DNA of 64,000 nt. Source: Sporocytophaga myxococcoides DSM 11118. GTDB taxonomy: Bacteria; Bacteroidota; Bacteroidia; Cytophagales; Cytophagaceae. The stretch lies in contig NZ_AUFX01000003.1 of the NCBI RefSeq assembly GCF_000426725.1, forward strand, positions 310,001 to 374,000, written 5' to 3'. The translations under genes were made by a program, and so were the position numbers. Positions 26,501 to 62,567 of the stretch are shown in pieces; the stretch's first letter is position 1; the number at the start of each line of letters is the position of its first letter. The notes under the pieces were generated by a model that worked only from the letters and a program-made list of their open reading frames with translations, searched no databases and had not been told where the DNA came from.

Positions 26501-29500
26501 TAATACTCTGAATGCTACCTACATTCCTTCAGCTGATGATATTAACAACCTAGGTGTAACCTTGACTCTGACATCAACCGGAAATGGTACATGTACCCCA
26601 GTATCGGATAGTAAAGTAGTTACAATTAATCCTGCACCTACAGTAAATGCAGGTCCAAGTCAGATTGTTTGTGCTGACAATACCACAATTACATTGTCAG
26701 GAAGCAGAACTGTGGCACTGGGCTCTATCTGGACCAGCACAAGTGGAGGTTCTTTCGCTGATCCTAACAGCTTGAATACAACCTATACTCCTACAGCAGC
26801 AGAGAAAGCGGCAGGATCAATAAACCTAACATTAACAACAACCAATAATGGATTGTGCCATGAAGTTTCAAGCACAGTTTCCATATTAATTACTCCTATA
26901 CCAGTTGTTAATGCAGGACTGGATCAATCTGCCTGTGTTGATGTTAATACTTACCAGTTAGCCGGAAAAGTTAAAAATGCTCCGGCTGGAATCTGGACAA
27001 CATCCGGATCCGGATCATTTGATGATGCAAATGCTCTTAATGCAATATATACACCGTCTTCAACTGACAAAACTAACGGTAGTGTGACATTAACATTTGC
27101 TTCGGCAGGTAATCCCCTTTGTAATGTAGTAAGTGACCAATTGGTACTAAGCTTTACTAAAGCACCTACTATTACTGCCGGATTGGATCATTCAATCTGC
27201 GCTGACAAAGATACAATTCACATTGCTGGAGCTGTAACAGTAGCCGCAGGTGGAAAATGGAGCAGTAATGGAGATGGCTATTTTGCACCAAGTGCAAATT
27301 CCTTAGGAACAGTTTATTACCTTGGAGATTCCGATAAAGGACAAACTTCTGTAACACTTTCTATTATCTCAACAGACAATGGAACTTGTAATGCAGTTAC
27401 TGATAATCTCCTAATAGATATTGCACCTAAACCTGTGGTAAATGCAGGACCTGATCAGACTATATGCGCAGGTCAGGCCAATGCAATCCTTTCAGCATCT
27501 GTACTAAATGCAACTGGTGGTATTTGGTCTACTACAGGAACAGGTACATTTGCTAATGGAACGTCTTTAAGCACTACTTATATACCTTCACCTGCAGACA
27601 ACGAAGCCGGAGGTGTAATTCTTACTTTGAATTCAACAGGTAACGGATTATGTAATGCTGTTTCAGACTTTATTGTAATCAATGTAATTCCATCTCCATC
27701 TGCTATAGTAAATGCAGGAGCAGATATAATTACATGTAAAGATCTCAGATCAGTAAAATTATCAGGTTATGTATCAAATGCTGGAGGTGGAATATGGTCA
27801 ACTTCAGGTACTGGAACATTTACTCCTGATATCAATACACTAAATGCTTCCTATACTCCATCATTGGCAGATAAAGCAGCTGGAAATTTTGTATTAACCT
27901 TAACAACTGCGAATAACGGCCAATGTAGCGCAGTATCAGATGATATGAGTGTAACATTGACACCTATTCCTGTTGTTACTGCAGGATCATACCCTGACAT
28001 ATGCGGATTACCTCAGGCCTCCATTTCATTAAATGGTAATGTTACAATTGCAACTGGTGGTATATGGAAATCAAGCGGTTCTGGTGTATTTGCAGTAGAT
28101 GCTGCAACACTGACTGCTACCTATTTCCCATCAAAACTGGATATCCAAAATGGTGTTGTAGGTTTAACATTAACCTCAACAGGGAATGGAACTTGTGCTC
28201 CGGTAATGCAGACTACTCAGGTGAAAATTATACAGCCACCAGTCGTAGATGCAGGAACAGACAAATCCTACTGCTCTGACATTGTGACTCTTGTATTAAG
28301 AGGAACATCTCAGTTTGATAATGGAGTTACCTGGACAGGAACTGGATCAGGAACATTTAATCCTAATAACAAAGTAACTTCAATCTATTCTCCTTCGGAT
28401 GTAGATAAAACTGTAGGAAAGGTAGTAGTAACGTTAACTGCTGCAGGAAAAGGAAGCTGTCCTGCAACTTCAAATACTTCGGTAATCACTATACTTCCTG
28501 CTCCACAGGCAGATGCAGGACCTGATCAGACAACTTGTAATATATTGAATTCTTATAGCCTGAATGGAATACATAAAAACTCTACCAGTGGAGCTTGGTT
28601 TACATCTGGTACGGGTTCATTCGACGACTTTAACAAACCTGATGCAATCTATTTCCCTTCTGATGCCGATAAGACATCTGGTGCTGTAGACCTTGTATTT
28701 ATCACAACTGGTAATGGAATATGTAAATTCAGTCAGGATACCATGACACTTTATGTAGACAAATCTCCAATTGTGAATGCTGGAACAGCAATGATTTGTG
28801 CTATTGAAGATGGTTCACAGCTTGCCGGGGATATTAAAAATGCCTCTGGAGGTAAATGGTCTACTTCAGGAACAGGAGTATTTGCAATAAATGCCGCTGA
28901 CCTGAATGCTAAATACTACCCTACTCTGGATGATTTTAATAAAGGACAGGTAGTTCTTAAACTTACCTCATTCATCAATGGCGCTTGTCCTGCTGTATCT
29001 GACAGTACTGTGTTGAAAATTGATCCTCTGCCAATTGCAGATGCGGGAAGAGATCAGTTTGTATGTAGAGGAACAACTATAATCCTTGAAGCTAAAACCA
29101 GTCCAGGTATTACTTATGAGTGGAAAAACAAAGCAGGCACCATTATTAGCACTGATCCTGTCTTTAGTATAACTGCTGCCAGTGATTCATCAATTACTCT
29201 GACAGTTAAAGATTATAAAGGATGTCCTGCACTAGATAGCATCAATGTCGGAGTATTTGATTTCAACAACTCGAAATTTGATATGCTTGATCATTATTGC
29301 TACAGTGATACTTTGATCATTCACTCTCTGGCAAGCGGACTACCTGCTGTTCCTGGTCAATATCAGTGGTATAGAGACGGTATCATTTTAAATAGTGAAA
29401 ACAAATCTGCCATAGCTCCTCAAAGCGATGGTTTGTTCAGAGTAGTTTACGAATATGGTAATTGTTCTACTGAAAAGACAACCAGTGTAACTAACCCTCC

Positions 29501-45595: not shown

Positions 45596-48500
45596 TTATT
45601 TAGCTGAAATTGAAGGCGTAATAAGAACGAATTCAACTCTTCTGTTATTAGACTTTCCTTCCTTAGTAGTATTAGTATCTATAGGCTTAGACTGTCCAAA
45701 ACCTCTTGACTCAAGCCTTTGGCTATCTATACCCATTTTAATCAATGCTTCTTTGATAGCTTTTGATCTGTCATCAGATAAAATTTTGTTCTTCGTCGGA
45801 TCACCATCGCTGTCTGTATGACCTTCAATACTGAACATCAATTCAGGGTGTTCTTTCATAACAGTAGCAATCTTCATGATCTCAGGGAATGACTCCATTT
45901 TAATAGTTGCCTTTCCTACGTCAAACAAAATATTTCTGGTAACGAATTTACCTTGACTCATGATTTGATCATAAAGCGTCATACCTTCTTTAGGTGTACT
46001 TACAGAACAACCATTAACGTCTGTAACAGTAACAGAATATTGCCCCATCTTCAATCCGATTACATCTTCAGTAGTTTTTCCATTGCTCCACTGATAAGAA
46101 TAAGGACCTACACCTCCATTAACTGAAATAAAGATAGCACCGCTGCTGTCACCGCAACATTTAACTGTCCATAGAGAGTCAATTTTAAGTGAAAGCGGAT
46201 TAGGCTGTGTGATATCTACAGATACAGAATTAAGACAACCATTAGCATCACTTATCAAAGCAGAATAGCTTTCTGCAGGAAGATCAAAAAGGTCTCTTCC
46301 GTTAGTAGCATTGCTCCACTGATATTTATAAGGAGGAACTCCACCTTCTACATCAAGAGTAATCGATCCCTTTTTCTCTCCATAACACAATATATCTGTA
46401 ACTTTGGCAATTTTTGTTACAAATAAAGGAGGTTCAGTAACTCCTGCTGTAATAGTGCTTATACAACCATTTCCTTCTGTAATGGTCAGTGAATAATCCC
46501 CTGCAGGGACTCTTATAAGATCCTGAGAAGTAGCTCCATTGTTCCACTGATAGCTATAAGGTGGTACACCTCCACTAACACTAACATGAATTTCACCTGA
46601 AGTATCTGCATTACATTTCAGATTCATGATAGCATCTAATGACTTCACAAGCATTGCAGGTTGCTCAATAGTAGTTTTAAGTGTTTTGCTACATCCTAAA
46701 GCATCAGTGATAGTCACAGAATAGTCTCCACTAAGAACATTCTGTATATTCTGAGAAGTCTCACCATTACTCCATTTAAATTTATATGGAGCAACTCCAC
46801 CTCTTACAGATACGATGACTTCACCTTCACTAAGACCATTACATTTCATATGACGAACACTTTCAATAGCAGTTACTAGTTCTGCAGGTTCAGAAATATC
46901 AGCAGTCAGAGTCTCCATACAGCCATTATGATCTTTGATCTTAACAGTATAATTTCCAGCAGATAAGCCAGATATGTTCTTCACAATAGATCCATTACTC
47001 CAGTTATATACATATGGTTGAGTTCCACCAGTTACGGAAATATTAATAGATCCCTGACGGCTTCCCTGACAAGAGATGTTGCTTACAGAATCCAACTTCA
47101 CGGAAAGTAAAGACGGTTGTTTAACATTTACTTTGATACTATTATTAGTACAACCATTTTTATCAGTAACAGTGAGGTTATAATCACCTGCTTCAATTCC
47201 GGAAATATCCTGAGTTGTAGCTCCATTGCTCCAGTTGTATGAGTATGGTTCAACTCCACCAGCAACAGTAACATTTATTTCACCAGAACTTTCACCAAAA
47301 CACTTAATATCTTTTAGATTATCCAATGTAGCAGAAAGTAATTTAGGTTCCTCTATAGTAGCTTCTGCCTTTGCAGTACATCCTTTCGCATCCGATATCG
47401 CTAAATTATATTTACCCGATTTTAAATTCTGTAAATTCTGAAGTGAATCTCCACTATTCCATTTGAACTTATATGGAGCAGTTCCACCTGATACAGAAAG
47501 GTTAATTGATCCTGATTTTTCACCTGCACACATGTTACTTTTCACTGAAGCGATACTAGCCGTCAATAATTCCGGTTCAGATATTGACTCTGCAACTGTT
47601 TCAGTACATCCGTTAGCATCTATGATTTTTACTGAGTAGTTACCTTTGCTCAAACCAGTAATATCCTGACCCTTAGCGCCATTGCTCCAGCTATAACTAT
47701 AAGGTGCCACCCCACCTTCAACTGAAAGATCAAGGGCTCCTTTATTATCACCAAAACAAGATAGATTCTTAACATCAACTATTTTTGCAGTCAGTACCGA
47801 CGGTTGTTTCACCGTAACTTTCTCTGAATTTATACAGCCATTCTTGTCTGTAATGCTTATTGAATATGTTCCAGCAGCTATACCGCTCAAATCTTGGGTT
47901 CTGGCACCATTATCCCATACAAAATTATATGGAGGAACACCACCAGTGATCGTCGTGGTTATAGATCCTGAATTATTATCAAAACAAGAAAGGTTTTTAA
48001 CTTCAGCTACTTTTAATTTTAAAGTAGAAGGTTGTGTAATATTAGCTTTTAAAGTTTGAGTACTTCCATTTGCATCTTTAATCAATACAGAGTAAGCACC
48101 CACAGGAATATTCGTAAGATCTTCTGTACTAGATCCGTTGCTCCAAGTATAAGAATAAGGAGGGTTACCACCGGTTACTGCAATATTAATTGCACCTGAA
48201 ACTTCCCCAGCACAACGAATATTAGATACTGATTCTATAGTTGCCACCAAAGAAGAAGGTTCTTCGATAACAGCACTTACTGATTTCAAACATCCATTGG
48301 CATCTGTAATTAGACATGTATAATTTCCTGCCGGGGCTGCAGCTAAATTCTGAGCAAAGGTACCATTACTCCAGCTAAACTTGTATGGAGCAACTCCACC
48401 AGAAACTGAAACAGCAATTGCTCCAGTGTTTTCTCCATAGCGGATAATGTTTTTTACAGATTCGACTTTTGCAACTAAGCTTGTTGGTTGGTTTACTGTA

Positions 48501-51500
48501 GCTGAAATAGTTTTACCCAAACAACCATTTGCATCAGAAAGAGTGACAGAATATGAACCGGCCCCTACTTCTGTTAAGTCTTGAGTAGTTGCTCCGTTAC
48601 TCCATTTATAAACATAAGGTCCTGTACCACCAACAACAGTGATGTTTACAATTCCACTTTTTTCGCCATTACACTGAACATGCTTCACAGACTCCAGAGA
48701 TTGAGTTAATACAGCAGGGCTTGAAACCTTAGCAGATAAAGTTTCTATGCAACCTTTAGCATCTGTAATAGTTACAGTATAGCTCCCTGCTGATAATCCT
48801 TTAAGATCTTCAGTAGTTGCTCCATTACTCCATTTGAAATTGTATGGAAGGGATCCACCTTTAACAGAAATATTAATTGAGCCAGTAGTATCTCCATAAC
48901 ATGGAATATTTTTAACGGCATCAACTGAAGCTGTTAACATAGCAGGCTGATTAATCTCCTGATTTAAAGTGGTGATACAACCTTTTGCATCAGAAACCCT
49001 TACAGTATAGTTTCCAGCAGGAACGTCCATAATATCTTCAGTAGTAGCGCCGTTGCTCCAGGTATAAGAATAAGGACCAACACCACCTTTTACTGAAACA
49101 CTGATTGCACCTTTTTTCTCTCCATAACAATTGATATGTTTTGCAGCTTCAAGAGTTACAATAAGAGCAGGAGGCGCTGTGATATTTGCGGTTAAAGACT
49201 TTAAACAACCATTGGCATCTGAAACTTTTACAGAATAATTACCAGCAGAAACGTTTGTCAAGTCTTCCGTTTTAGCACTATTACTCCAGGCATAAGAGTA
49301 AGGACTAGTACCACCCTTAACAGAGATATTTACTATACCAGTATTCTCACCATTACACTCAACATTTGTTATCGATTCGATGGAAGTAATGAGAGTAGTT
49401 GGTTGAGATATATTAGCTGAAATATTTTCAGTACATCCATTCGCATCAGATACTTTCAAAGAGTAAGAGCCAGCTTTTAATTTGGAAATATCTTCAGAAG
49501 TAGCCCCATTAGACCATCTATAAGAGTAAGGCGTTACCCCTCCTTTAGCAGATACCTGAATTGCTCCTGTGCTATCACCATGACATTTAACATCTGTCAC
49601 ACCATCAAGATTAGCTTGAAATAATACAGGCTCTGATATTTTAGAGCTAGTTACTTTTTTACATCCAACAGCATCAGTAACTGTTACTGAATACAAGCCA
49701 GCTGGAACATCTAAAATATTCTGAGTAACCGCACCATTATTCCAAATATATGTATATGGAGTAACACCACCTTTAACTGTAATATTTACAGCTCCTTTAC
49801 TTTCACCAAAACATTTAATGTCTTTAGATGATTCTACAGAAACTTCCATCAAAGAATTTTGATTGATTTTCGCAGATAAAGTATCCTTACATCCATGAGC
49901 ATCTGCAATGCTCACAGAATAGGAACCTGCCTTAACACCCACTAAGTCCTGAGTAGTAGCTCCATTATTCCATTTATATGAATAAGGAAGAACACCACCA
50001 GAAACTGAGATATTAACAGCACCTTTGCTGTCTCCATTACAATTAATATTCGTTACTGCTTCCAAAGTAGAAACTACTTTAGTTGGCTGAGTAATGGTAG
50101 CACTTAGGGAATTAGTACATCCATTAGCGTCTGAAACATTTACAGTATAACTTCCAGCTACCGCATTACTAAGGTCTTTTGAAGTTGTTCCATTGCTCCA
50201 TTTATATGTATATGGAAGAACACCACCTGCTACTGCAATGTTTACTGCTCCATTATTACCACCATTACAGCTAACATCCTTTAACGATTGCTTATCAACA
50301 GTAAGAGGAGTTGGTTGAGCAATACTTGCTTTTACAGTTTTAAAACACCCCTTAGAATCTGTTACTTTAAGAGAATAATCACCGGAACCGATATTAGCAA
50401 GATCTTTTGTTGTAGAACCGTTACTCCATGAATAAGTATATGGAGCTATACCACCATTCACTGAAACATTAATAGCCCCGGATTTATTTCCATGGCATAG
50501 GATATTTTTAACTTCTCCAACCTGCAATGCAATTGCAGGAGATTCAGTAATTGTTGTACTAACAGAAGTTAAACAACCATTGGCATCTTTAATTTCGGCT
50601 GAATAATTTCCAGCAGGAATATTAACCAGATCCTCTGTAATTGTTCCATTACTCCATTTATAAGTATAAGGCTTAACACCACCGCCCACTGATATATTCA
50701 CTGATCCTTTGTAATCACCATTACATAAAATATTTTCCACAGCTTCTACTTTTGATGTAAATGGTTCAGGTTGATTGATAACAAAACTTAAACTTTTAGT
50801 TATGCCATTAGCATCTATTACTTCAACAGAATAATTTCCGGCACCAACTCCTGATAGATTCTGTGTAGTCGCACCATTATTCCATCTAAATTTATAAGGA
50901 GCCACGCCACCATTTACAGCAATCTGAATTTCTCCTTCTTTGTTTCCATTACACTTAACATCTTTCAGATTATCAAGCTTTAAAGAAAGCAATTGAGGCT
51001 GTGTGATATTTACTATAACAGTTTTACCGCATCCGGTAGCATCAGATACTATAACTGAATAACTACCAGCCTGAAGTCCTGAAACATCTTTAGTAGTTGC
51101 GCCATTTGTCCATTTATAAGAATAAGGAGGAACTCCACCATCCACTTTAATATTTATCGATCCATCTTTTCCACCGAAAAAGCTAACATTTTTAAGTTCA
51201 CCTAATGCAGCACTTAACAATGGAGGCTGATTAATTGTAGCAGATATAGTTGTTTTACAACCGTTAAAATCAATTATGTTTAAAGTATAAGAACCTGCAG
51301 TGATACCTGTAATATCTTGTGTTGTTGCACCATTGCTCCACTTGTATTTAAAAGGTCCCACGCCACCATGAACTGAAACATTTATTGCACCGCCTTTATC
51401 TCCATTACATTTGATATGCTTCAATTCATCTATCTTTAAAGTCAGCTTCTCTGGCTCTTTTACATTTGTAGTTGATGCTTCCTGGCAATTATTTGCATCT

Positions 51501-52252
51501 GTTACCACAACATAATATTTGCCGGCTGGCACGTTATGAAGGTCTTCCTTTGTTGATCCATTGTTCCACAAATAACGATATGGTGGAACCCCACCTGAAA
51601 CCGAAATATCAACTTTTCCAGTGCTATCACCACTACATTTTATATTTGAAACATCATCAATAGACCTTACAATTAAAGGTTTTTGCTCAACATTTACTGA
51701 TAAAATCTCCTGACAGTTGTTAGCATCAGAAACCAAAACAGAATAAGTACCAGCTGGTACTTCATGGATATCCTGAGTTGTAGCACCATTACTCCAACTA
51801 TATTTGTATGGTTCAACACCTCCCTTAACTGATATTTCTACCAATCCTTTCTTAAAACCAAAACATAATATATGCGCTACAGAATCTGTTTCTACACTTA
51901 ATTTAGAAGGCTCCGAAACTTCCACTATAATTGAGTCCTTACATTTATAAGAGTCTGCAACATAAAGTTTATATGTTCCTGCTTTAAGACCAGTAATATC
52001 CTGTGTTGTTGCACCATTACTCCATTTGTAAGAATACGGAGGGATACCTCCGGTTACATTTATATCAATGGCACCTTTATTGTCGCCATTACATAAGTTG
52101 TTCTTTAGATAGACTAGTTTAACTTTAGTCAAAGTTGATTGAGTAATCCTCACTCCTGAACTATTTTCATCAGTCTGCCCATATCCATGAGAATACATGA
52201 ATAAAAGCAAGAGAGAAAATAATATATGCTTAATCTGTCGTTTTAAATGCAT
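45596..52252 (-). CDS. Giant SprB-repeat protein (2218 residues) ending in an OmpA peptidoglycan-binding domain
   Basis: A signal peptide (ILFSLLLLFMYSHGYGQ) is followed by 27 tandem 76-residue SprB-type units (~48-2088), consensus CNGDxxGAINISVxGGVxPY then YxWSNGATTQDLxGxxAGSYSVTVTDANGC. A C-terminal OmpA domain follows (~2102-2212): ILFDVGKATI, FSIEGHTDSDGD, ILSDDRSKAIKEAL, GFGQSKPI, NNRRVEFVL, with the acidic and arginine residues that bind peptidoglycan diaminopimelate. SprB repeats normally occur in surface adhesins with a T9SS terminus; here that terminus is absent and the protein should be held to the cell wall. Repeats 5, 6, 17 and 18 each lack one cysteine. A small OmpA protein is encoded just upstream on the same strand. 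Confidence 0.92.
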   Translation of the reverse strand: MHLKRQIKHILFSLLLLFMYSHGYGQTDENSSGVRITQSTLTKVKLVYLKNNLCNGDNKGAIDINVTGGIPPYSYKWSNGATTQDITGLKAGTYKLYVADSYKCKDSIIVEVSEPSKLSVETDSVAHILCFGFKKGLVEISVKGGVEPYKYSWSNGATTQDIHEVPAGTYSVLVSDANNCQEILSVNVEQKPLIVRSIDDVSNIKCSGDSTGKVDISVSGGVPPYRYLWNNGSTKEDLHNVPAGKYYVVVTDANNCQEASTTNVKEPEKLTLKIDELKHIKCNGDKGGAINVSVHGGVGPFKYKWSNGATTQDITGITAGSYTLNIIDFNGCKTTISATINQPPLLSAALGELKNVSFFGGKDGSINIKVDGGVPPYSYKWTNGATTKDVSGLQAGSYSVIVSDATGCGKTVIVNITQPQLLSLKLDNLKDVKCNGNKEGEIQIAVNGGVAPYKFRWNNGATTQNLSGVGAGNYSVEVIDANGITKSLSFVINQPEPFTSKVEAVENILCNGDYKGSVNISVGGGVKPYTYKWSNGTITEDLVNIPAGNYSAEIKDANGCLTSVSTTITESPAIALQVGEVKNILCHGNKSGAINVSVNGGIAPYTYSWSNGSTTKDLANIGSGDYSLKVTDSKGCFKTVKASIAQPTPLTVDKQSLKDVSCNGGNNGAVNIAVAGGVLPYTYKWSNGTTSKDLSNAVAGSYTVNVSDANGCTNSLSATITQPTKVVSTLEAVTNINCNGDSKGAVNISVSGGVLPYSYKWNNGATTQDLVGVKAGSYSVSIADAHGCKDTLSAKINQNSLMEVSVESSKDIKCFGESKGAVNITVKGGVTPYTYIWNNGAVTQNILDVPAGLYSVTVTDAVGCKKVTSSKISEPVLFQANLDGVTDVKCHGDSTGAIQVSAKGGVTPYSYRWSNGATSEDISKLKAGSYSLKVSDANGCTENISANISQPTTLITSIESITNVECNGENTGIVNISVKGGTSPYSYAWSNSAKTEDLTNVSAGNYSVKVSDANGCLKSLTANITAPPALIVTLEAAKHINCYGEKKGAISVSVKGGVGPYSYTWSNGATTEDIMDVPAGNYTVRVSDAKGCITTLNQEINQPAMLTASVDAVKNIPCYGDTTGSINISVKGGSLPYNFKWSNGATTEDLKGLSAGSYTVTITDAKGCIETLSAKVSSPAVLTQSLESVKHVQCNGEKSGIVNITVVGGTGPYVYKWSNGATTQDLTEVGAGSYSVTLSDANGCLGKTISATVNQPTSLVAKVESVKNIIRYGENTGAIAVSVSGGVAPYKFSWSNGTFAQNLAAAPAGNYTCLITDANGCLKSVSAVIEEPSSLVATIESVSNIRCAGEVSGAINIAVTGGNPPYSYTWSNGSSTEDLTNIPVGAYSVLIKDANGSTQTLKANITQPSTLKLKVAEVKNLSCFDNNSGSITTTITGGVPPYNFVWDNGARTQDLSGIAAGTYSISITDKNGCINSEKVTVKQPSVLTAKIVDVKNLSCFGDNKGALDLSVEGGVAPYSYSWSNGAKGQDITGLSKGNYSVKIIDANGCTETVAESISEPELLTASIASVKSNMCAGEKSGSINLSVSGGTAPYKFKWNSGDSLQNLQNLKSGKYNLAISDAKGCTAKAEATIEEPKLLSATLDNLKDIKCFGESSGEINVTVAGGVEPYSYNWSNGATTQDISGIEAGDYNLTVTDKNGCTNNSIKVNVKQPSLLSVKLDSVSNISCQGSRQGSINISVTGGTQPYVYNWSNGSIVKNISGLSAGNYTVKIKDHNGCMETLTADISEPAELVTAIESVRHMKCNGLSEGEVIVSVRGGVAPYKFKWSNGETSQNIQNVLSGDYSVTITDALGCSKTLKTTIEQPAMLVKSLDAIMNLKCNADTSGEIHVSVSGGVPPYSYQWNNGATSQDLIRVPAGDYSLTITEGNGCISTITAGVTEPPLFVTKIAKVTDILCYGEKKGSITLDVEGGVPPYKYQWSNATNGRDLFDLPAESYSALISDANGCLNSVSVDITQPNPLSLKIDSLWTVKCCGDSSGAIFISVNGGVGPYSYQWSNGKTTEDVIGLKMGQYSVTVTDVNGCSVSTPKEGMTLYDQIMSQGKFVTRNILFDVGKATIKMESFPEIMKIATVMKEHPELMFSIEGHTDSDGDPTKNKILSDDRSKAIKEALIKMGIDSQRLESRGFGQSKPIDTNTTKEGKSNNRRVEFVLITPSISAK
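45989..52111 (-). repeat. 27 tandem SprB-type coding repeats, 76 codons each
   Basis: Each unit has a first Cys at unit position 7 and a second in the NGC motif near position 57. Twenty-five units are 76 residues and two (16 and 22) are 77; the first Cys of unit 1 is residue 54 and of unit 27 residue 2032, which fits exactly 27 units. Confidence 0.9.
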
Positions 52253-53809: not shown

Positions 53810-54181
53810 TTACTTTCCATCATTTAGCGATAGAATTTCTTTAAGATCCTCTGGAATTTCCATGGGTTTAAGAGGAGGAACATTAGAACCACCAGTATTG
53901 CCAACAGGAATTTTCCCTACAAAAGATTTTACGCCACCTACAAGCAAACGTGGAAGTTGCCCCATTACTTCTCTGCTACTTTTTATCCTGATTCCGAACT
54001 TCAACATCAACCAATGTGCATATGAATGCTCTACAGGATAAGCCTGACCAAGTATGTGAGCTCTTTCTAAATGTCGCCATGCAACCTGAAGCTCTCCGGC
54101 AGTGGAAGCCTTTCGATATAAGGTTATTTCTTTATCAAAATAGACCTTTAGTTTCTGAGGAATTTTAAAGTAAAGTTTCAT
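53810..54181 (-). CDS. DUF3703 family protein in metal-efflux cluster
   Basis: 123 residues, soluble, no signal peptide. The DUF3703 pattern is WRHLERAHILGQ at 35-46, HSYAHWLMLKFGI at ~52-64 and EVMGQLPRL at ~71-79, with conserved His42, His52 and His56. Members are small helical proteins often encoded beside heavy-metal resistance genes; their role is unknown. It follows the adaptor gene after 69 bases on the same strand and is the last gene before the terminator, which fits membership of the operon. Confidence 0.82.
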   Translation of the reverse strand: MKLYFKIPQKLKVYFDKEITLYRKASTAGELQVAWRHLERAHILGQAYPVEHSYAHWLMLKFGIRIKSSREVMGQLPRLLVGGVKSFVGKIPVGNTGGSNVPPLKPMEIPEDLKEILSLNDGK

Positions 54182-54250: not shown

Positions 54251-55447
54251 TTACATAGCTGACATATTATGCCCATCCATATTTCCTCCACCCTTTTTCA
54301 GGATATGTTCACTTTGTAAAAGATAAGATCCGGAGATTACAATGGTGTCCCCTTCATTTAATCCATGAAGTATAGAAGCTCTATCTCCTGATATCTCTCC
54401 CAGATGTACCATTTTTGATTCATAAACTCCACCTTTTTTAACCCATACCATTGAGCCTTTACTATCCCTCAAAACAGCGTTAGACGGAACCATAAGTACT
54501 TTTTCATTTGCTTGATGCCAATAAATATTGGCTTGCATTCCTGGCTGTACATTTGGGAAATCTGGTACTATAAGAATTCTTACAATAGTTATTGAAGAAT
54601 TAGAAGAAACCTGAGGCAACACTTCAATAACTTTTCCTTCTATCCTATGATCATGTGTACCCTCTATAGTTACATCAACTAAACTTCCTTTTCTTATCTT
54701 TGCAGTTTCAGTAGAATAAAATTCCGCATCAACCCAAAGGGTTTTATAAGTAGTAAGTTCAATCAAGGGACTTCCTTCCATTACAATAGCGCCTTCTGTA
54801 ATATTAATTTTATTTATATATCCAGAAGATGGACTTTCAATCGGAAATGGTATAGAAGGTTTAGTTTGTTTTTTTACCTTCTCAATTTGTGCTTTAGAAA
54901 TCCCCCATAATTCCAGCTTCTTAATAGCTGCTTCCATAATAGCTTGCATGGCTAAATCATTAGGATTATCCTGAAACTTTTTGTTAGCATTTATTAACTC
55001 ACTTTGAGTAGAAGCCAGCATTTCAGAATAAATTTTATAAACTATGTCTCCTTTTTTAATATATGCACCATTTGTCTTGAAGTTCAGTTGATCAATTCTT
55101 CCATCCATTCTGGCATTGATGAAAATAGTATTGTTTTCGTTTTCTTTAACAACTCCATTGGCATAAACTTTACTGTCAATATAATCATATCCAACGCGCA
55201 AAGTCTTGATGTTTGCCAACCTCTCCTGTTGCTCACTTAGTTTTATACCTTTAGAATTGCTTATTTTAATAGGAGTTAGTTCCATCTTACATATGGGACA
55301 CTTACCTGGCTTCTTCTCCAACACTTGTGGATCCATTGAACAAGTATAATATAGAGAATCATTATCCGAATGATCTGCTTGTTTTGTTTTACTTTCACAG
55401 GAAAATAAAATCATTACTATGAATAATATTGAAATATAGTTTATCAT
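54251..55447 (-). CDS. RND efflux periplasmic adaptor (CusB-like) with N-terminal heavy-metal-binding domain (copy 2)
   Basis: 398 residues. Lipoprotein signal ending LFSC (Cys17). A heavy-metal-binding motif at 34-60 (YTCSMDPQV ... GKCPICKMEL) supplies Cys36, Cys50 and Cys53. The membrane-fusion-protein body follows: INARMDGRIDQL (lipoyl-like domain), a short helical hairpin (NANKKFQDNPNDLAMQAI), FPIESPSSGYI and the beta-barrel and membrane-proximal parts. It links the inner-membrane pump to the TolC-like channel and probably passes Cu(I)/Ag(I) to it. Its first base overlaps the last base of the preceding adaptor gene, so the two are translationally coupled. It is distinct enough from the other adaptor to suggest two roles. 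Confidence 0.9.
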   Translation of the reverse strand: MINYISILFIVMILFSCESKTKQADHSDNDSLYYTCSMDPQVLEKKPGKCPICKMELTPIKISNSKGIKLSEQQERLANIKTLRVGYDYIDSKVYANGVVKENENNTIFINARMDGRIDQLNFKTNGAYIKKGDIVYKIYSEMLASTQSELINANKKFQDNPNDLAMQAIMEAAIKKLELWGISKAQIEKVKKQTKPSIPFPIESPSSGYINKINITEGAIVMEGSPLIELTTYKTLWVDAEFYSTETAKIRKGSLVDVTIEGTHDHRIEGKVIEVLPQVSSNSSITIVRILIVPDFPNVQPGMQANIYWHQANEKVLMVPSNAVLRDSKGSMVWVKKGGVYESKMVHLGEISGDRASILHGLNEGDTIVISGSYLLQSEHILKKGGGNMDGHNMSAM

Positions 55448-56733
55448 TATTGTTTAACTTTTATAAATGCCTCACTATCTATAAAATAAGATGCCACAGG
55501 TGCAATACTATCATTTTCTGATATTCCTGAAAGTACTTCAGTCCATTCATTCATTGTAATTCCAGTAAGAACTTCTTTTGCAATATATCCAACTTCTTGT
55601 TTTACAAATACAGCCGATCGAGACTTACCTAGATGTATAACAGATAAATTAGGAATCCAAAGCTTTTGAGCTTGATCACTTTTAACAGTGATATTTCCTT
55701 CAATAAGCGTACCTATAGTTAGGTTATTACTATTGGTGCAATTTAGGTATACTCTTACTGAGTAAAAATCATTACTTCCATCAAATGACTTTTCTATAAA
55801 ATCAATTTTACCTTCATAGATCTTGTTATTTATATTCACCTCTACTTTCTCTCCTTTTTGGATAAGAGTTATGTCATTAGGGTAAATTTTAAACATCGCC
55901 CATATATCTTTTTCATTGGCAATAGTAAAGAGCAAATCACCTTTTTTAATATAATTACCTTTCTTTAATAAAAGCTCCGCTTCCTTAAGACTATTATCCA
56001 TAGCGCTTGAACCTGATTCAGACGGCCATTCCAATCCATGACTGGCAATCTCACTTGCCAGAGCTAAAAAGTGTATATGTCCTTCGTAAGGAGAATATAT
56101 CGGAACAGTAGCATTTACTTTTCCACTCCTTTCAATTTTCTTAATAGAAGACTCTGTCATCCCTAGATTAATGAGCTTTTGATATAAAGCGTTAATAGTA
56201 CTCTGTTCAGCATCTGACGATGATTTATAAACAAGCAAATACTCATCTTGCGCAATTTGTAACTCAGGACTATAAATATCCATAAGCTGTTGTCCTTTAC
56301 TAATCCTTTCAAAATTAAACTTTACATAGAGCTTTTCTATTCTTCCGGAAACACGAGCTGAAATGCTTTTGGTCTTATTCGGATTATATGTCAAATAACC
56401 CTGAGCTTTAATATGACTCTTTCCTTTATTGAATGATGGAGCAACAGGTATAAGAGAAGAAATAACAATTTGATTCGTAGGTTCGGTAAGATAACTTAAA
56501 GAATCTACTGCCTCAGTCATAAGTTCGAGGTCCATTCCACATTTAGGGCAAGTACCTGGTTTATCCGATACAACTTCAGGATGCATAGGACAATAATACT
56601 TATGGTCAGAATGTATTGTATCATATTTTGTTTCATGGTCTATATGTTTATCAGATTTTGATTTGCATGAAGCAATAAGTAAAACCGATAACATTAAGAT
56701 TACTATATTAAAATAATTGTAATTGCTTCTCAT
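55447..56733 (-). CDS. RND efflux periplasmic adaptor (CusB-like) with N-terminal heavy-metal-binding domain (copy 1)
   Basis: 428 residues. Lipoprotein signal (LSVLLIASC, Cys23), His-rich stretch, then a metal-binding motif at 47-70 (YYCPMHPEV ... GTCPKCGMDLE) with Cys48, His51, Cys62, Cys65 and Met67. The adaptor body follows (SARVSGRIEKLYVKF, PIYSPYEGHIHF, WAMFKIYPNDITLI). This is the MFP of a CusABC-type exporter. It overlaps the TolC gene by 26 bases and the second adaptor by 1 base. Having both adaptors with their own metal-binding domains in one operon suggests that they act together in the same pump. Confidence 0.9.
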   Translation of the reverse strand: MRSNYNYFNIVILMLSVLLIASCKSKSDKHIDHETKYDTIHSDHKYYCPMHPEVVSDKPGTCPKCGMDLELMTEAVDSLSYLTEPTNQIVISSLIPVAPSFNKGKSHIKAQGYLTYNPNKTKSISARVSGRIEKLYVKFNFERISKGQQLMDIYSPELQIAQDEYLLVYKSSSDAEQSTINALYQKLINLGMTESSIKKIERSGKVNATVPIYSPYEGHIHFLALASEIASHGLEWPSESGSSAMDNSLKEAELLLKKGNYIKKGDLLFTIANEKDIWAMFKIYPNDITLIQKGEKVEVNINNKIYEGKIDFIEKSFDGSNDFYSVRVYLNCTNSNNLTIGTLIEGNITVKSDQAQKLWIPNLSVIHLGKSRSAVFVKQEVGYIAKEVLTGITMNEWTEVLSGISENDSIAPVASYFIDSEAFIKVKQ

Positions 56734-57997
56734 ATTCAGCCTGCAAAAGCAGTAGTTTTAACGTTATGTCTTCATATTGAATTTTAGCCATCTGAAAATT
56801 CATTTGCGCATCAAGTGCCACAAAAAGTTCTCCCGTATTTTGAGAGTAAGACAGCATTGCCAGATCATATGATTTCTTTAAAGATGGTAAGATCATTGTC
56901 TTATATAATTCCATCTGATATTTGGCAGAAGAAATTTCACTTTTCAATCCATATATCATACCAACTGATTCATTCATGATGGCTTGTTTCTGACTATAAT
57001 AGGCCTTTAATTGGTAATTATATGCTAATACATTGGATCGATACATCTTCGATGACCATGGAGCAAAAGGAATACTCATCATACCCATAAGAGTAAACTG
57101 ATTAGGATTTTCTCCAAAGGCAAACATGTGGCCAAATTCTATCCCAAAATCAGGACGAGATTTGTAGCGTTCCACTTTTTGCTTTAAGAAAGTAGCTTGT
57201 ATATTTTTATCCAGCACTAGTAAATCACTTCGATTAAATTTTAGAGAAGCTGTATCAATAGCATACTTTTCATAGTCTTTTATCACAAGTTGAGAATCAA
57301 CATGAAAAAGTTCCTCTCCTTTTCTATTCATTAGAGAGTGGAGATAATACAGCTTTTGTTTTCTTTCATTCTCCATCATGATCCTTTCATTCTGTAACTG
57401 GGCTTTTTGAGACCTGGCTTTATAAATACTCGAAAGCATTTCCTGATTATAAGCTATCTTACTTTCACCAAAAGTTATCATAGTTTCCAAAGTGTGCTCC
57501 GCATCCTTCAGAATATCTATTTTTCGATCAATGATTTGTATTTCATTAAATAGCTTTTTCGCATCATATAGCAACTTGTTGGCGGTTGTATTTCCAGATT
57601 CGGTCTCTATTGAAGAAACACTTCGTAAATATTCCCGATTGGCATTCAATCTTGCAGGATTGGGAATCATTTGTTTTCCTTGAATCATAAAATTCCCCAT
57701 ACCGGGCATCTTGGCATTCATCCCATTAAAAGTTTCAACCTGGGGACGCCAATAAGAAGTCTTATAAGGTGTCATAAAAAAGCCTGCACCTATCTGAGGT
57801 GCCTCCCAAGCCTTTGCTCCTTCTGCCATAGCATCCATTGACTTTGCTTGTTGTCTGTACATTTCCAGCTCCGGATTATCGAATAAGATGGACTTCTTAA
57901 CAATATCAAAGTTGAGCACTTGCGCTGATGCATTAAAATACAGCAAGGCTAAAATTAAGGAGAATATATATTTATTCTTTAACATCGAGCAATTCAA
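56708..57997 (-). CDS. TolC-family outer-membrane channel (CusC-like)
   Basis: 429 residues with signal peptide (IFSLILALLYFNASAQ). The body has the long paired helices of outer-membrane efflux proteins: LEMYRQQAKSMDAMAEGAKAWEAPQIG, KLFNEIQIIDRKIDILKDAEHTLETMI, PDFGIEFGHMFAFG, SVGMIYGLKSEISSAKYQMELYK. It forms the exit duct of the tripartite pump. It overlaps the end of the CusA C-terminal gene by 26 bases (57972-57997) and the first adaptor by 26 bases, so all three are coupled. Methionine is frequent (for example GMNAKMPGMGNFM), in keeping with copper or silver transport. Confidence 0.88.
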   Translation of the reverse strand: MNCSMLKNKYIFSLILALLYFNASAQVLNFDIVKKSILFDNPELEMYRQQAKSMDAMAEGAKAWEAPQIGAGFFMTPYKTSYWRPQVETFNGMNAKMPGMGNFMIQGKQMIPNPARLNANREYLRSVSSIETESGNTTANKLLYDAKKLFNEIQIIDRKIDILKDAEHTLETMITFGESKIAYNQEMLSSIYKARSQKAQLQNERIMMENERKQKLYYLHSLMNRKGEELFHVDSQLVIKDYEKYAIDTASLKFNRSDLLVLDKNIQATFLKQKVERYKSRPDFGIEFGHMFAFGENPNQFTLMGMMSIPFAPWSSKMYRSNVLAYNYQLKAYYSQKQAIMNESVGMIYGLKSEISSAKYQMELYKTMILPSLKKSYDLAMLSYSQNTGELFVALDAQMNFQMAKIQYEDITLKLLLLQAEYEKQLQLF

Positions 57998-59909
57998 TTT
58001 TACCGTTTTTATTCAATTCGTGTTCTTTCATCATTTCGAATACAATTGGCGTCACCAGCAATACATAAATTACAGAAGAGATAGTCCCTCCGATGAGAGG
58101 CACAGTAATGGGTAGCATTACATCACTTCCAACTCCGGTCGCCCATAGAATTGGCACAAGACCAAACAAAGAAACTGAGACTGTCATAAGTTTAGGTCTT
58201 AACCTTTTAGCAGCACCTCTGATTACATATTCGCGTAGATCTTCATTTTTAATTAGTCCTCTTGAATTTCCCTTTTCCTCAACCAAGTGCTGCATAGCCT
58301 CATTCAGATAAATAACCATTAGCATCGCTGTTTCAATAGCCATTCCAAATAAAGCTATGAAACCCACTGCGACGGCTACCGAAAGATTGATCCCATAGAA
58401 ATATACCATAAATACACCACCGACCAGTGCAAATGGAACAGTGATCATTGTAGCCATAGCTTCTTTAGCTGATTTGTAAGTATAGTACAAAACCATAAAG
58501 ATGATGAAAATAACTATGGGCATAATCAGCTTTAAAGTTCTGTTGGCATGAATCTGATTTTCCCATTGGCCACTCCACTCTATAAAATAACCTTGTGGCA
58601 TTTGAGCAATCATAGTATTAAGCTTTTCTTGTGTTTCTTGTACTGTACTTCCCAGGTCACGCTCTCGTACGTTAAATAGTACAGTTCCACGCAACATTGC
58701 ATTTTCTGAATTGATCATCGGAGGACCTTCAGAGATTCTAATATTGGCAACATCAGAAAGAAGTATAGTTCCAAACTGCATTGTTTGTACAGGAAGACGT
58801 TTAATATCTTCAAGACTTTCACGATATGCCTGCGCTACTCTGGCGTTGACTGAAAATCTTTGTCTGCCTTCAAATGTATTAGTAAGGTTCATTCCTCCCA
58901 ATGCGCTTTCTACCACCATATTTACATCATCCGTGGTAAGTCCATACCTTCCGATTGCTTCTTTATTTACCTCTATATCAATATATCTTCCTCCAACAAT
59001 TGGCTCTACATACAGATCCTTTACCCCATCCACATCCTTTAATGATTCCTTTATCTTATTTGATAAAGTATAGATAGAATCAATATTTTGTCCATAGACT
59101 TTAATACCAACGTCAGTTCTGATGCCAGTAGACAACATATTGATCCTGTTAATAATAGGCTGCGTCCAACCATTAGTAATACCAGGAATCTGTAATTTTG
59201 CATTTAATTCATTAAGAATATCAGTCTTCGTAATTCCCTGTCTCCACTCATATTTTGGTTTTAGAAGAATGATAGTTTCAATCATGCTTATTGGAGAATT
59301 ATCAGTGGCAGTAGAAGCTCTGCCAGCCTTTCCCAGCACGTGCGTTACTTCCGGAACTGTTTTAATTAATTTATCCTGAATCTGCAATATTCGCTTTGCT
59401 TCTGAATTAGATACATCCGGTAAGGTTACCGGCATAAATAATAAGGATCCCTCATCTAAAGGTGGCATGAACTCTGAGCCTAAGCGTGAAAGCATGATTC
59501 CACCTGAAATCAATAAGATTATATTAATGGCAATAGTCGTTTTCCTCCAATGCAAACAACATGTTAAAATCGGTGTATATATTTTTTCAAGTGTATGTGT
59601 AATCGGATTCTGACTTTCGGGCTTTAATCGACCTTTGAGAAAAAAGGATATAAGCACTGGTGTTAAAGTTATGGCAAGAAATGCATCTACCAAAAGAATA
59701 AATGTCTTTGTCCATGCCAATGGATGAAATAGTTTACCTTCCATCCCTGTGAGAAGAAAAACAGGTAGAAAGGAAGTGATCACCACAATGGTAGAAAAGA
59801 ATACCCCAGGTCCAACTTGCTTTGATGAAGCACTGATGATTTCCATCCGCTCATCTAGTTTAAGTGGATCAGTATTTCGTTTAAACAATTTTTGAAATAT
59901 ATTTTTCAT
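57972..59909 (-). CDS. cusA: CusA-like RND pump, C-terminal half (separate reading frame)
   Basis: 645 residues matching CusA from the loop after TM4 to the end: SKQVGPGVFFSTIVVITSFLPVFLL, WTKTF, the second periplasmic domain and TM8-12. The three copper-binding methionines of CusA (Met573, Met623, Met672) have counterparts at Met159 (LLFMPVTLP), Met209 (PISMIET) and Met258 (NRINMLSTG). The proton-relay glutamate and lysine are at Glu526 and Lys573 (AKRLRPKLMTVSV). It starts with its own ATG (MKNIFQKLFKRNTDPLK), immediately preceded by an in-frame TAA. The N-terminal half is encoded 58 bases upstream. Together they make a complete pump for Cu(I)/Ag(I) if the halves assemble. Confidence 0.85.
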   Translation of the reverse strand: MKNIFQKLFKRNTDPLKLDERMEIISASSKQVGPGVFFSTIVVITSFLPVFLLTGMEGKLFHPLAWTKTFILLVDAFLAITLTPVLISFFLKGRLKPESQNPITHTLEKIYTPILTCCLHWRKTTIAINIILLISGGIMLSRLGSEFMPPLDEGSLLFMPVTLPDVSNSEAKRILQIQDKLIKTVPEVTHVLGKAGRASTATDNSPISMIETIILLKPKYEWRQGITKTDILNELNAKLQIPGITNGWTQPIINRINMLSTGIRTDVGIKVYGQNIDSIYTLSNKIKESLKDVDGVKDLYVEPIVGGRYIDIEVNKEAIGRYGLTTDDVNMVVESALGGMNLTNTFEGRQRFSVNARVAQAYRESLEDIKRLPVQTMQFGTILLSDVANIRISEGPPMINSENAMLRGTVLFNVRERDLGSTVQETQEKLNTMIAQMPQGYFIEWSGQWENQIHANRTLKLIMPIVIFIIFMVLYYTYKSAKEAMATMITVPFALVGGVFMVYFYGINLSVAVAVGFIALFGMAIETAMLMVIYLNEAMQHLVEEKGNSRGLIKNEDLREYVIRGAAKRLRPKLMTVSVSLFGLVPILWATGVGSDVMLPITVPLIGGTISSVIYVLLVTPIVFEMMKEHELNKNGKIELLDVKE

Positions 59910-59967
59910 TTATTTTTCAATGATTAATTCATGATATGAATACACCTAGATGTTTCAATCATTGTAG

Positions 59968-61239
59968 TTAGACTCTTTTTTCATGTTCAACAGAAATATG
60001 TCTGTATGCATTTTCAACCATAACAATTCCATCATCCACCACTACACCTATTGCCAATGCAATACCAGTTAAAGACATAATGTTGGATGATATGCCAAAT
60101 GTTTCTAGCAGAATAAATCCTACAGCTACAGATATTGGTAATTGTATAATAATGATTAATGCACTTCTCCAATTGAACAAGAACAAAATTACGATGATAG
60201 ATACTGTAATCATTTCTTCATAAAGCGTTCCTCTTACAGAATCAATTGCTTCTTCTATAAGTGTACTTCTATCATATGATACCTTAAACTTCACACCTGC
60301 AGGCAATCCTTTTTCAACTTCCTTTATTTTTGCCTTTACATCTTTAATTACCTGATCTGCATTTTCACCGTATCTCATCACTACAATTCCACCGACAACT
60401 TCTCCGGTTCCATCCATATCAAATATGCCAAGTCGAAGATCTCCACCCATTTGTACACTTCCTATATCTTTAATTCTAACAGGTATTGAATTTCTCATAC
60501 TGACAGGCATGTTTTCTATCTCCTTTATGTTCTTAATATACCCCAAACCTCTTATAATGTAGGACATATCGGTCATTTCGAATTTTCGCCCCCCGACATC
60601 ATTATTATTGGCTTTTACAGTTTTTAGCACATCCATCAGTTGAAGGTTATAATAAGTAAGTTTATGAGGATCAATCACGATCTGATATTGTTTTTGAAAT
60701 CCTCCGAATGAGGCGACCTCTGCGACACCCTGTACATTTTGTAAGGCAAACTTTATATACCAATCCTGCAAGGCTCTCTGCTCTCCTAAATCCATATTCG
60801 GAGCATCCAGATGATACCAGAAAATGTGTCCCACTCCTGTTCCATCAGGACCTAAAGAAGGCGATACGTCATTGGGTAATAGCTTCTGTGCGTAGTTCAG
60901 ACGCTCCAGTACTCTAGTCCTTGCCCAGTATATATCTGTATTATCTTCGAATATCACATACACGAAACTCATCCCAAACATAGAAGAACCCCGAATATTT
61001 TTTACTTTAGGAATTCCCTGCAGATTAGAAACAAGTGGATAAGTCACTTGATCTTCGATCACCTGTGGGCTACGTCCCATCCACTCTGTAAAAACTATCA
61101 CCTGATTCTCGGACAAATCCGGGATAGCATCAATCGGGTTCTTTTGTATAGAGTATATTCCCCATGCAAATAGCCCGGCTGCAATGAATAGAACAGTCCA
61201 TCTGTTTTTAAGCGATATTTCTATTATTCTTTCTACCAT
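59968..61239 (-). CDS. cusA: CusA-like RND pump, N-terminal half (separate reading frame)
   Basis: 423 residues covering TM1, the first periplasmic domain and TM2-4 of CusA: WTVLFIAAGLFAWGIYSIQ, FTEWMGRSPQVIEDQVTYPL, GSSMFGMSFVYVIFEDNTDIYW, SLGPDGTGVGHIFWYHL, GGRKFEMTDMSY, SVRGTLYEEMITVSIIVILF. The proton-relay aspartate of TM4 is Asp402 (GIALAIGVVVDDGIVMVENAYRH). The frame stops just after EHEKRV, in the cytoplasmic loop between TM4 and TM5, where intact homologues run on. Several stop codons occur in the next 58 bases. All folds present look intact. Confidence 0.85.
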   Translation of the reverse strand: MVERIIEISLKNRWTVLFIAAGLFAWGIYSIQKNPIDAIPDLSENQVIVFTEWMGRSPQVIEDQVTYPLVSNLQGIPKVKNIRGSSMFGMSFVYVIFEDNTDIYWARTRVLERLNYAQKLLPNDVSPSLGPDGTGVGHIFWYHLDAPNMDLGEQRALQDWYIKFALQNVQGVAEVASFGGFQKQYQIVIDPHKLTYYNLQLMDVLKTVKANNNDVGGRKFEMTDMSYIIRGLGYIKNIKEIENMPVSMRNSIPVRIKDIGSVQMGGDLRLGIFDMDGTGEVVGGIVVMRYGENADQVIKDVKAKIKEVEKGLPAGVKFKVSYDRSTLIEEAIDSVRGTLYEEMITVSIIVILFLFNWRSALIIIIQLPISVAVGFILLETFGISSNIMSLTGIALAIGVVVDDGIVMVENAYRHISVEHEKRV

Positions 61240-61293: not shown

Positions 61294-61650
61294 TTACTTT
61301 TTTCTATCATACTGGCAGCATCCAGGAAGCTTTTTATATGTTACTTCATTGGCTTTAACTTTTTCAGTATCATGTCCTGCTTCAGCTATCAGCTGATGAA
61401 CTTTATCTAAAGTAATTATATGAGGATCGTATACTACTTTAATCATTTTAGTTTTCACATTCCAGTCTGCACTAACAATGGCCGAGTTTCCTTTTAATGA
61501 AGACTCTATTCTCTTTTTACACATTTCACAATTACCATACACTTTGAATGTTACAGTCTCATTATGCAATGGATTAGCAGATGTATTGGCTGAGAATAAT
61601 GTAACTAATATGGCACAAATCAATGCGAAGATTCCTTTTGTAGATTTCAT
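61294..61650 (-). CDS. Secreted heavy-metal-associated (HMA) domain protein
   Basis: 118 residues. Signal peptide (GIFALICAILVTLFSANTSA) then an HMA ferredoxin-like fold (~32-100) with the metal-binding CxxC at 41-44 (YGNCEMCKKRIE), SADWNVKTKMIKVVYDP and LIAEAGHDTEKVKA. A C-terminal CysCys pair (PGCCQY) gives two more thiol ligands. It probably captures Cu(I)/Ag(I) in the periplasm and hands it to the pump encoded next. Likely the second or first gene of the efflux operon; a perfect inverted repeat lies 37 bases upstream of its start. Confidence 0.88.
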   Translation of the reverse strand: MKSTKGIFALICAILVTLFSANTSANPLHNETVTFKVYGNCEMCKKRIESSLKGNSAIVSADWNVKTKMIKVVYDPHIITLDKVHQLIAEAGHDTEKVKANEVTYKKLPGCCQYDRKK

Positions 61651-61918: not shown

Positions 61919-62311
61919 TTAAATTATAAGGGAGCGTATCTGTATGTATATAGGCGTCTTAGGTGGCCCATTTTTATAAGAGCAAAACCTTACAGAACTT
62001 GAATTTTCAAATGAAAATAGAGGCTGTACTGCACTAATGTATGAAGGTAATATAGCAATGAAATTGGAATAATCAGGAAAGACAAAATTGCTTTTGCTAT
62101 GTATTTGTGAGTCATCCAATGAAAAGTTGAATTGATTATCCTTGCAACATTCTTTTGCTACTTTAATACTACACTGACCACAACCTTTGTTCTTGGGTGT
62201 AAAAAATGAAATCGAAGCTAATTTGCCAGCACAATAATGAGTATACACTGAAAGTCCTGTACTAAAGACCATGTACAACATTAAAATAAATATGGTGGCA
62301 ATTCTTTTCAT
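61919..62311 (-). CDS. HYC_CC_PP family small secreted protein (metal cluster)
   Basis: About 130 residues from the ATG at 62311 (MKRIATIFILMLYMVFSTG, a good signal peptide); an upstream in-frame ATG at 62353 adds 14 residues. The family signature is HYCAGKLASISFF, then CGQCSIKVAKECCKDN, then GPPKTPIY near the end. These cysteine-rich proteins are typical of Bacteroidota and often encoded next to copper or heavy-metal efflux genes; a metal-binding role is inferred. It is encoded upstream of the HMA gene on the same strand, with 268 bases between. Confidence 0.82.
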   Translation of the reverse strand: MKRIATIFILMLYMVFSTGLSVYTHYCAGKLASISFFTPKNKGCGQCSIKVAKECCKDNQFNFSLDDSQIHSKSNFVFPDYSNFIAILPSYISAVQPLFSFENSSSVRFCSYKNGPPKTPIYIQIRSLII

Positions 62312-62567
62312 TTGTACAAATATGAGTTTTTTTCCTCTGATGTTATTACACATTTATGGGTAAGAGTTACAAAATTTTGACTCACTTTAAAACAATCGGA
62401 GCAGCGGTTTGAAATTCCTTTCTATGTATATCAGATTAAATCAATAACTTAAACATTTCAATTTGAATATTTTAGATTGCTTCTTTTTCAAGCTTATATT
62501 AATCCTAACCCCATAAAGTCTTGTTCTATCGGATTCATGAGAAAAAAATCTATATTAGTTATAACAT

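What the first reader, a model, noticed from the sequence alone, without database searches (positions are those of the whole stretch)
57972..61239. CusA copper/silver pump split into two intact halves
The N-terminal half stops in the cytoplasmic loop between TM4 and TM5. The C-terminal half starts 58 bases on with its own ATG directly after an in-frame stop, and with a new basic leader. Three in-frame stops lie between, so no single base change restores one frame. Every key residue I checked is retained: Asp402 in TM4, Glu526 and Lys573 of the relay, and all three copper methionines (Met159, Met209, Met258). That argues the halves are still under selection and may assemble as a split transporter.
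Basis: partly seen in the sequence, partly recalled or inferred. Interest (0 to 1): 0.62.

Follow-up and report, generated by a model that had tools for sequence, protein, structure and literature searches.

The report
Copper pump permanently split in two
A metal-export pump that is normally one long protein is made here as two separate proteins, and many relatives among the Bacteroidota carry the same split, so it looks like an old working two-part pump and not a broken gene.

Summary
It is not a local lesion. Of 127 N/C pairs in related loci, 116 are split in the same TM4/TM5 loop and 11 fused, 7 of those outgroups. In an even draw of 395 genomes of the phylum, 24 carry it, with 29 N-halves and 29 C-halves and no intact copy at 54% identity or more. 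Trees need three changes of state, read as one old fission and two re-fusions. In three loci the order is reversed; in others unrelated genes lie between. Both halves show dN/dS of 0.02-0.04. The copper site and relay Asp are kept in 116 of 116 split pairs. The operon adds TolC and two CusB-like adaptors. Best reading: each protomer of a Cu(I)/Ag(I) pump is built from two chains. Assembly and transport are inferred, not shown. The basic leader is short or missing in 27 of 112 relatives. Nine searches of the open-access library found no split RND efflux pump.

The parts
59968..61239 (-). N-half of CusA-type RND permease (TM1, N-porter, TM2-4; D402 of the proton relay), 423 aa
59910..59967 (-). 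58-nt spacer with stops in all three frames; TAA directly before the C-half ATG
57972..59909 (-). C-half of the permease (basic leader, TM5-12, C-porter; copper site M159/M209/E211/M258, relay E526/K573), 645 aa
56708..57985 (-). TolC-family outer-membrane channel; its first ATG lies inside the C-half end (the listed ORF begins at a TTG at 57997)
55447..56733 (-). CusB-like adaptor 1 (HMBD + HlyD_D23)
54251..55447 (-). CusB-like adaptor 2 (HMBD + HlyD_D23)
61294..61650 (-). HMA-domain (CopZ/MerP-like) protein upstream of the N-half
61919..62353 (-). HYC_CC_PP family protein upstream, found at some related loci too

Best explanation
This is an ancient, functional two-chain CusA. A gene fission in the cytoplasmic TM4/TM5 loop, early in a Bacteroidota lineage of Cu(I)/Ag(I) RND pumps, gave an N-chain (TM1-4 with the PN/DN porter domains) and a C-chain (TM5-12 with the PC/DC domains). 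Shown by sequence: conservation of the split, one-to-one retention, purifying selection on both halves, intact copper and proton-relay residues, and a conserved operon with TolC and two CusB-like adaptors. Inferred: the two chains, in most loci made by overlapping or closely spaced cistrons, insert separately and pack into one RND protomer. Three such heterodimers would form the trimer that docks on the adaptor ring and TolC and exports Cu(I)/Ag(I) from the periplasm by proton antiport, with D405 on one chain and E939/K984 on the other. The split was most likely fixed neutrally at a permissive loop and is kept because each chain needs the other.
For: 116 of 127 N/C pairs are split in the same loop, 11 fused (7 of them outgroups), plus 2 C-halves at contig edges (loci chosen by similarity, near-copies included). 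24 of 395 evenly drawn phylum genomes hold 29 C-half and 29 N-half places; all 29 C-half places at 54% identity or more are split, and of 55 at 53% or less 53 lie in open frames of 1031 aa or more, the other two in shorter frames near contig ends (only three or four candidates a genome were scored). dN/dS 0.018-0.043 for both halves in five pairs of copies. Three changes of state on 121 and 60 rows; AU tests p 4e-46, 6e-6 and 7e-5 on 33 rows, the last two groups named after seeing the tree. Re-fused linkers are 41-43 aa, as in the one fused outgroup measured. Order reversed in 3 loci; other genes between the halves in L089, L095, L140. M573/M623/E625/M672 and D405 kept in 116 of 116; E939 115, K984 111. 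Both adaptors in 77 of 78 split loci with enough flank, TolC in 76 of 78. Over 87 loci N and C are far more conserved (mean distance 0.28, 0.30) than TolC and adaptors (about 0.6) and correlate at 0.82. Three plasmid records name both halves 'efflux RND transporter permease subunit' (that collection never shows pseudogene flags).
Against: No expression, protein or transport data. AlphaFold2 models of the lone halves are only moderate (pLDDT 67 and 66) and I could not fold them together. Five of 116 split pairs lack K984 and one lacks E939. Several TM methionines of E. coli CusA (M271, M403, M486, M501, M755) are mostly not kept, so the transmembrane copper path may differ. The N-C distance correlation (0.82) is hardly above that of TolC with adaptor 1 (0.81), and shared ancestry is not controlled. 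One congener (G003) has a frameshift in its C-half, though several of its other RND genes are in pieces too, which points to assembly error. A few relatives are fused (3 of 12 places in the family draw; L041), so two chains are not required everywhere.
Confidence: 0.85

Rival explanations
1. A decaying pseudogene: the gene was recently broken and the halves are remnants.
For: One congener, G003, carries a further frameshift in the C-half.
Against: dN/dS 0.02-0.04; internal stops in the matched stretch of 1 of 116 split pairs, that of G003; same split in many genera and on plasmids; 29:29 halves.
Confidence: 0.02
2. The halves are joined in the cell by programmed frameshifting, readthrough or a split intein, giving one chain.
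For: In 87 of 109 closely spaced N-C pairs the open frames overlap in different frames, so a slip could in principle fuse them there.
Against: In the window all frames of the gap hold stops; in 22 of the 109 stops lie between; in 3 loci the C-half gene precedes the N-half gene; Pfam shows no intein in either half and the extra tails are short.
Confidence: 0.03
3. Sequencing or assembly error at the junction.
For: None found here.
Against: Two congeners with 96% and 91% identical C-halves have the same layout with spacers of 59 and 53 nt, and three complete plasmid records show it too.
Confidence: 0.005
4. The two products work separately or with other partners (for example one as a regulator or a part-pump), not as one protomer.
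For: Genes are sometimes apart or reversed.
Against: Each half carries only part of the relay; 1:1 retention on the same contigs in 24 genomes; natural fused relatives; similar divergence of both halves.
Confidence: 0.08
5. The fused nested members are not re-fusions; the split arose many times from a fused ancestor, or recombination with a fused relative restored one frame.
For: Counts of changes do not tell gain from loss by themselves; the direction rests on the outgroup.
Against: Three changes suffice against many independent splits at one loop; AU tests reject grouping the fused members with the outgroup.
Confidence: 0.1

Closest known systems
E. coli CusA (CusCFBA), HME-type RND pump
   Same: Homology over the whole length of both halves, copper-binding M573/M623/E625/M672 and relay D405/E939/K984 (residue roles from passages of PMC8092243)
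   Different: One 1047-aa chain and one adaptor gene in E. coli; here two chains and two adaptors; TM methionine pairs partly lost
SecD/SecF
   Same: RND-superfamily transporter with a SecD and a SecF part; passages of PMC8277102 describe Thermus SecDF as 2 x 6 TM and as one fused chain; that many bacteria make two separate chains is recalled
   Different: 6+6 TM and protein translocation; here 4+8 TM with copper-site residues; SecF model only 25.7 bits against a cut-off of 160
MdtBC heterotrimer
   Same: RND pump made of two gene products (named as a heterotrimer in PMC8277102)
   Different: MdtB and MdtC models are 1040 and 1025 positions long, so each is full-length; here each product is part of one protomer
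TriABC (recalled, not from a call)
   Same: RND pump with two different adaptors
   Different: Its RND subunit TriC is one chain

Membership tests
CusA/CzcA HME-RND transporters (TIGR00914) | One protein over the family model's curated cut-off | tested here: not met
   Each half alone scores 615 and 471 bits, under the cut-off of 701; together they cover profile 1-425 and 427-1043 of 1051
CusA/CzcA HME-RND transporters (TIGR00914) | One chain of about 1050 aa with 12 TM | tested here: not met
   Two chains of 423 and 645 aa
CusA/CzcA HME-RND transporters (TIGR00914) | Three-methionine plus glutamate copper site (CusA branch) | tested here: met
   In the window and in 116 of 116 split pairs
CusA/CzcA HME-RND transporters (TIGR00914) | Proton relay D405/E939/K984 | tested here: met
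   All three in the window; 116, 115 and 111 of 116 split pairs
CusA/CzcA HME-RND transporters (TIGR00914) | Operon with adaptor and outer-membrane channel | tested here: met
CusA/CzcA HME-RND transporters (TIGR00914) | Trimer that exports Cu(I)/Ag(I) | not testable with these tools
   needs biochemistry
SecD/SecF | Match to the SecF family model over its cut-off | tested here: not met
   25.7 bits against 160

The most novel reading that the evidence does not exclude
The fission is a functional design, not a neutral accident: a trimer of two-chain protomers in which the two different CusB-like adaptors take the two non-equivalent docking sites, and in genomes with two or three split pumps (for example G164, G271, G279) N- and C-chains from different copies can mix into hybrid pumps.
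Probability: 0.15. Interest if true: 0.8.

Novelty: new variant of a known kind. Interest (0 to 1): 0.64.

Why it matters
RND efflux pumps are treated as single 12-TM chains. A natural lineage that has run as two chains for a long time, and appears to have re-fused twice, gives a direct way to test how RND protomers fold and assemble and how proton and metal coupling works across a chain break. It is also a ready split point for reporters. It warns that annotation counts such pumps as two 'permease subunits' (seen), and that size filters would discard them.

Tried and rejected
AlphaFold2 on each half alone gave moderate models; Foldseek ranks CusA structures first, but with rmsd of about 15-16 A (N-half) and 11 A (C-half), so they say little beyond family and nothing about assembly.

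Partial correlations of the two adaptors with each half gave no clear one-adaptor-one-half pairing (adaptor 1: N given C 0.43, C given N 0.12; adaptor 2: 0.35, 0.28). This does not favour the dedicated-adaptor reading, and shared ancestry is not controlled.

The idea that the basic leader is essential was dropped: 27 of 112 split C-halves scored have a short leader, taking the ATG nearest the N-half stop as start. For L046 that start is unsure, since a TTG further upstream opens the frame.

A possible half-swap in L061 (Runella limosa) turned out to be a mosaic with breakpoints inside both genes, not an exchange of whole halves.

Chryseobacterium cadmium RNA-seq (PMC13209784, passages) and Mucilaginibacter pedocola (PMC6260751, passages) gave no expression of the two halves as such.

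Rows dropped before counts: 16 paralogue loci (L001-L008, L013-L020) and 11 shorter duplicate loci, matches under 48% identity or with 550 (C) or 370 (N) aligned residues or fewer; one pair with internal stops (L143) and 5 identical rows before the 121-row tree; L143 and three pairs without the anchor motif (in L083, L144, L149) before the leader count, while L143 stayed in the residue counts. Near-copies from named and unnamed collections remain, so counts are not of independent events. Tree rows were cut by hand to 60 and 33; the long-branch rows L131 and L083_2, flagged, were left out of both.

The named loci are the 80 best of at least 586, so not an even sample; searches are drawn evenly, but there only three or four candidates a genome were scored.

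Full report
What is there. On the minus strand, 59968-61239 encodes 423 aa and 57972-59909 encodes 645 aa. They match the first and last parts of one CusA/CzcA-family RND permease: TIGR00914 positions 1-425 and 427-1043 of 1051, Pfam ACR_tran 1-419 and 408-1020. The 58-nt spacer holds stops in all three frames and a TAA directly before the second ATG. The 17 other matches to ACR_tran that span the whole family model in this genome are single open frames.

The split is old and shared. In its genus, G001 and G002 show the same layout. G003 does too, with a frameshift in the C-half, and several other RND genes of G003 are also in pieces, which suggests an error-prone assembly. In the family draw, 11 of 19 genomes have a close match: 9 of 12 places are split and 3 are fused. 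Of 80 named loci, the best 80 of at least 586, there are 78 split pairs, 1 fused gene and 2 loci with only a C-half at a contig edge; one locus holds two pairs. In an even draw of 395 genomes of the phylum, 24 (6%) have the split pump, from several families and more than one class, with 29 C-half and 29 N-half places on the same contigs. All 29 C-half places at 54% identity or more are split. Of 55 at 53% or less, 53 lie in open frames of 1031 aa or more, and two in shorter frames near contig ends. Only three (C) or four (N) candidates per genome were scored there. That the phylum is Bacteroidota is inferred: a family member, G005, gives the same match values as the named Cytophaga aurantiaca locus L029.

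The halves behave as separate genes. Over 109 scored N-then-C pairs the nearest C-half ATG overlaps the N stop in 41 (26 as a 4-base overlap), lies within 20 nt in 52, at 21-100 nt in 9 and further in 7, one of the last (L046) by an unsure start. L089 has three small ORFs between the halves (one an HMBD protein), L095 and L140 a methyltransferase-type gene. In L044, L138 and L139 the C-half comes first and the N-half last, with TolC and two adaptors between.

History. A tree of 121 rows and one of 60 rows both put all split pairs and four fused genes in one clade opposite fused outgroups. Three changes of state are needed, read as one fission and two re-fusions (L041; and L141, L026, L142). 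On 33 rows, AU tests reject keeping all fused genes together (p 4e-46), the outgroup with the L141 group (6e-6) and the outgroup with L041 (7e-5); the last two groups were named after the tree was seen. One search warned of long branches (L131, L083_2); both rows were left out of the smaller trees. Linkers of the four re-fused proteins are 41-43 residues between fixed marks, as in the one outgroup that my pattern measured (43); six outgroup rows gave no measure. L141 lies on a single contig of 4,433,218 bases, which I recall as the size of the Cytophaga hutchinsonii genome; that name comes from memory.

Selection and residues. dN/dS is 0.018-0.043 for both halves in five pairs of copies (one pair, L029/L028, seems to be two copies within one species); a sixth pair was saturated. 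Aligned to E. coli CusA, D405, M573, M623, E625, M672 and T987 are kept in 116 of 116 split pairs, E939 in 115, K482 in 114, K984 in 111. Three pairs have V and two L at K984. M391, M410 and M1009 are kept in 114-115, but M271, M403, M486, M501 and M755 are mostly replaced. The roles of these residues are from PMC8092243 (passages read). In the same operon N and C differ by 0.28 and 0.30 on average while TolC and the adaptors differ by about 0.60. The N-C distance correlation is 0.82 over 87 loci, the highest of ten but hardly above TolC with adaptor 1 (0.81), and ancestry is not controlled.

Operon. N-C-TolC-adaptor1-adaptor2 or a variant with both adaptors is found in 77 of 78 split loci with enough flank, TolC in 76 of 78. 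The Pelobacter outgroup L154 has a single adaptor upstream, as does E. coli; the six other outgroup loci show one adaptor upstream within short flanks. The re-fused L041, L141 and L142 keep the two-adaptor layout, so the two adaptors do not depend on the split.

Mechanism. Shown: conservation, co-retention, constraint, intact sites. Inferred: separate membrane insertion, pairing into one protomer, trimer formation, Cu(I)/Ag(I) export by proton antiport. Why it is kept is not known; neutral fixation at a tolerant loop followed by mutual need is the simplest account.

Print. Searches of the open-access library gave, in the titles and abstracts listed, no paper on an RND efflux pump in two polypeptides. 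Passages were read in PMC8277102 (the tool holds only its first 300,000 of 747,799 characters), PMC5417439, PMC13209784, PMC8262934, PMC8092243, PMC3637150 and PMC6260751. Subscription papers and preprints were not searchable, so absence is not proven.

Noticed in passing
window 45596-52252 (-): 2218-aa protein with 27 SprB-repeat stretches and a C-terminal OmpA domain, a giant repeat protein.
   Followed up: partly
window 17568-30494 (+): 4308-aa ORF that looks made of many alike repeats.
   Followed up: no
L061 (Runella limosa): Both halves are mosaics: porter segments resemble other Runella, the stretches at the N-half end, C-half start and C-half end resemble another clade, as if the TM domain had been exchanged across both genes; one record only.
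   Followed up: partly
L043, L046, L060, L144, L149; L089: Split pumps that lack the relay lysine K984 (V or L) and one (L089) with E939 changed to Q.
   Followed up: no
G164 C8:366000-410000 (L144, L145): Three split pumps within about 37 kb of one genome.
   Followed up: no
L100: Record titled Williamsia (Actinomycetota) carries a split pump that sits inside the Bacteroidota tree; probably a mislabelled MAG contig.
   Followed up: no
window 53810-54181 (-): DUF3703 protein directly downstream of the adaptor genes.
   Followed up: no
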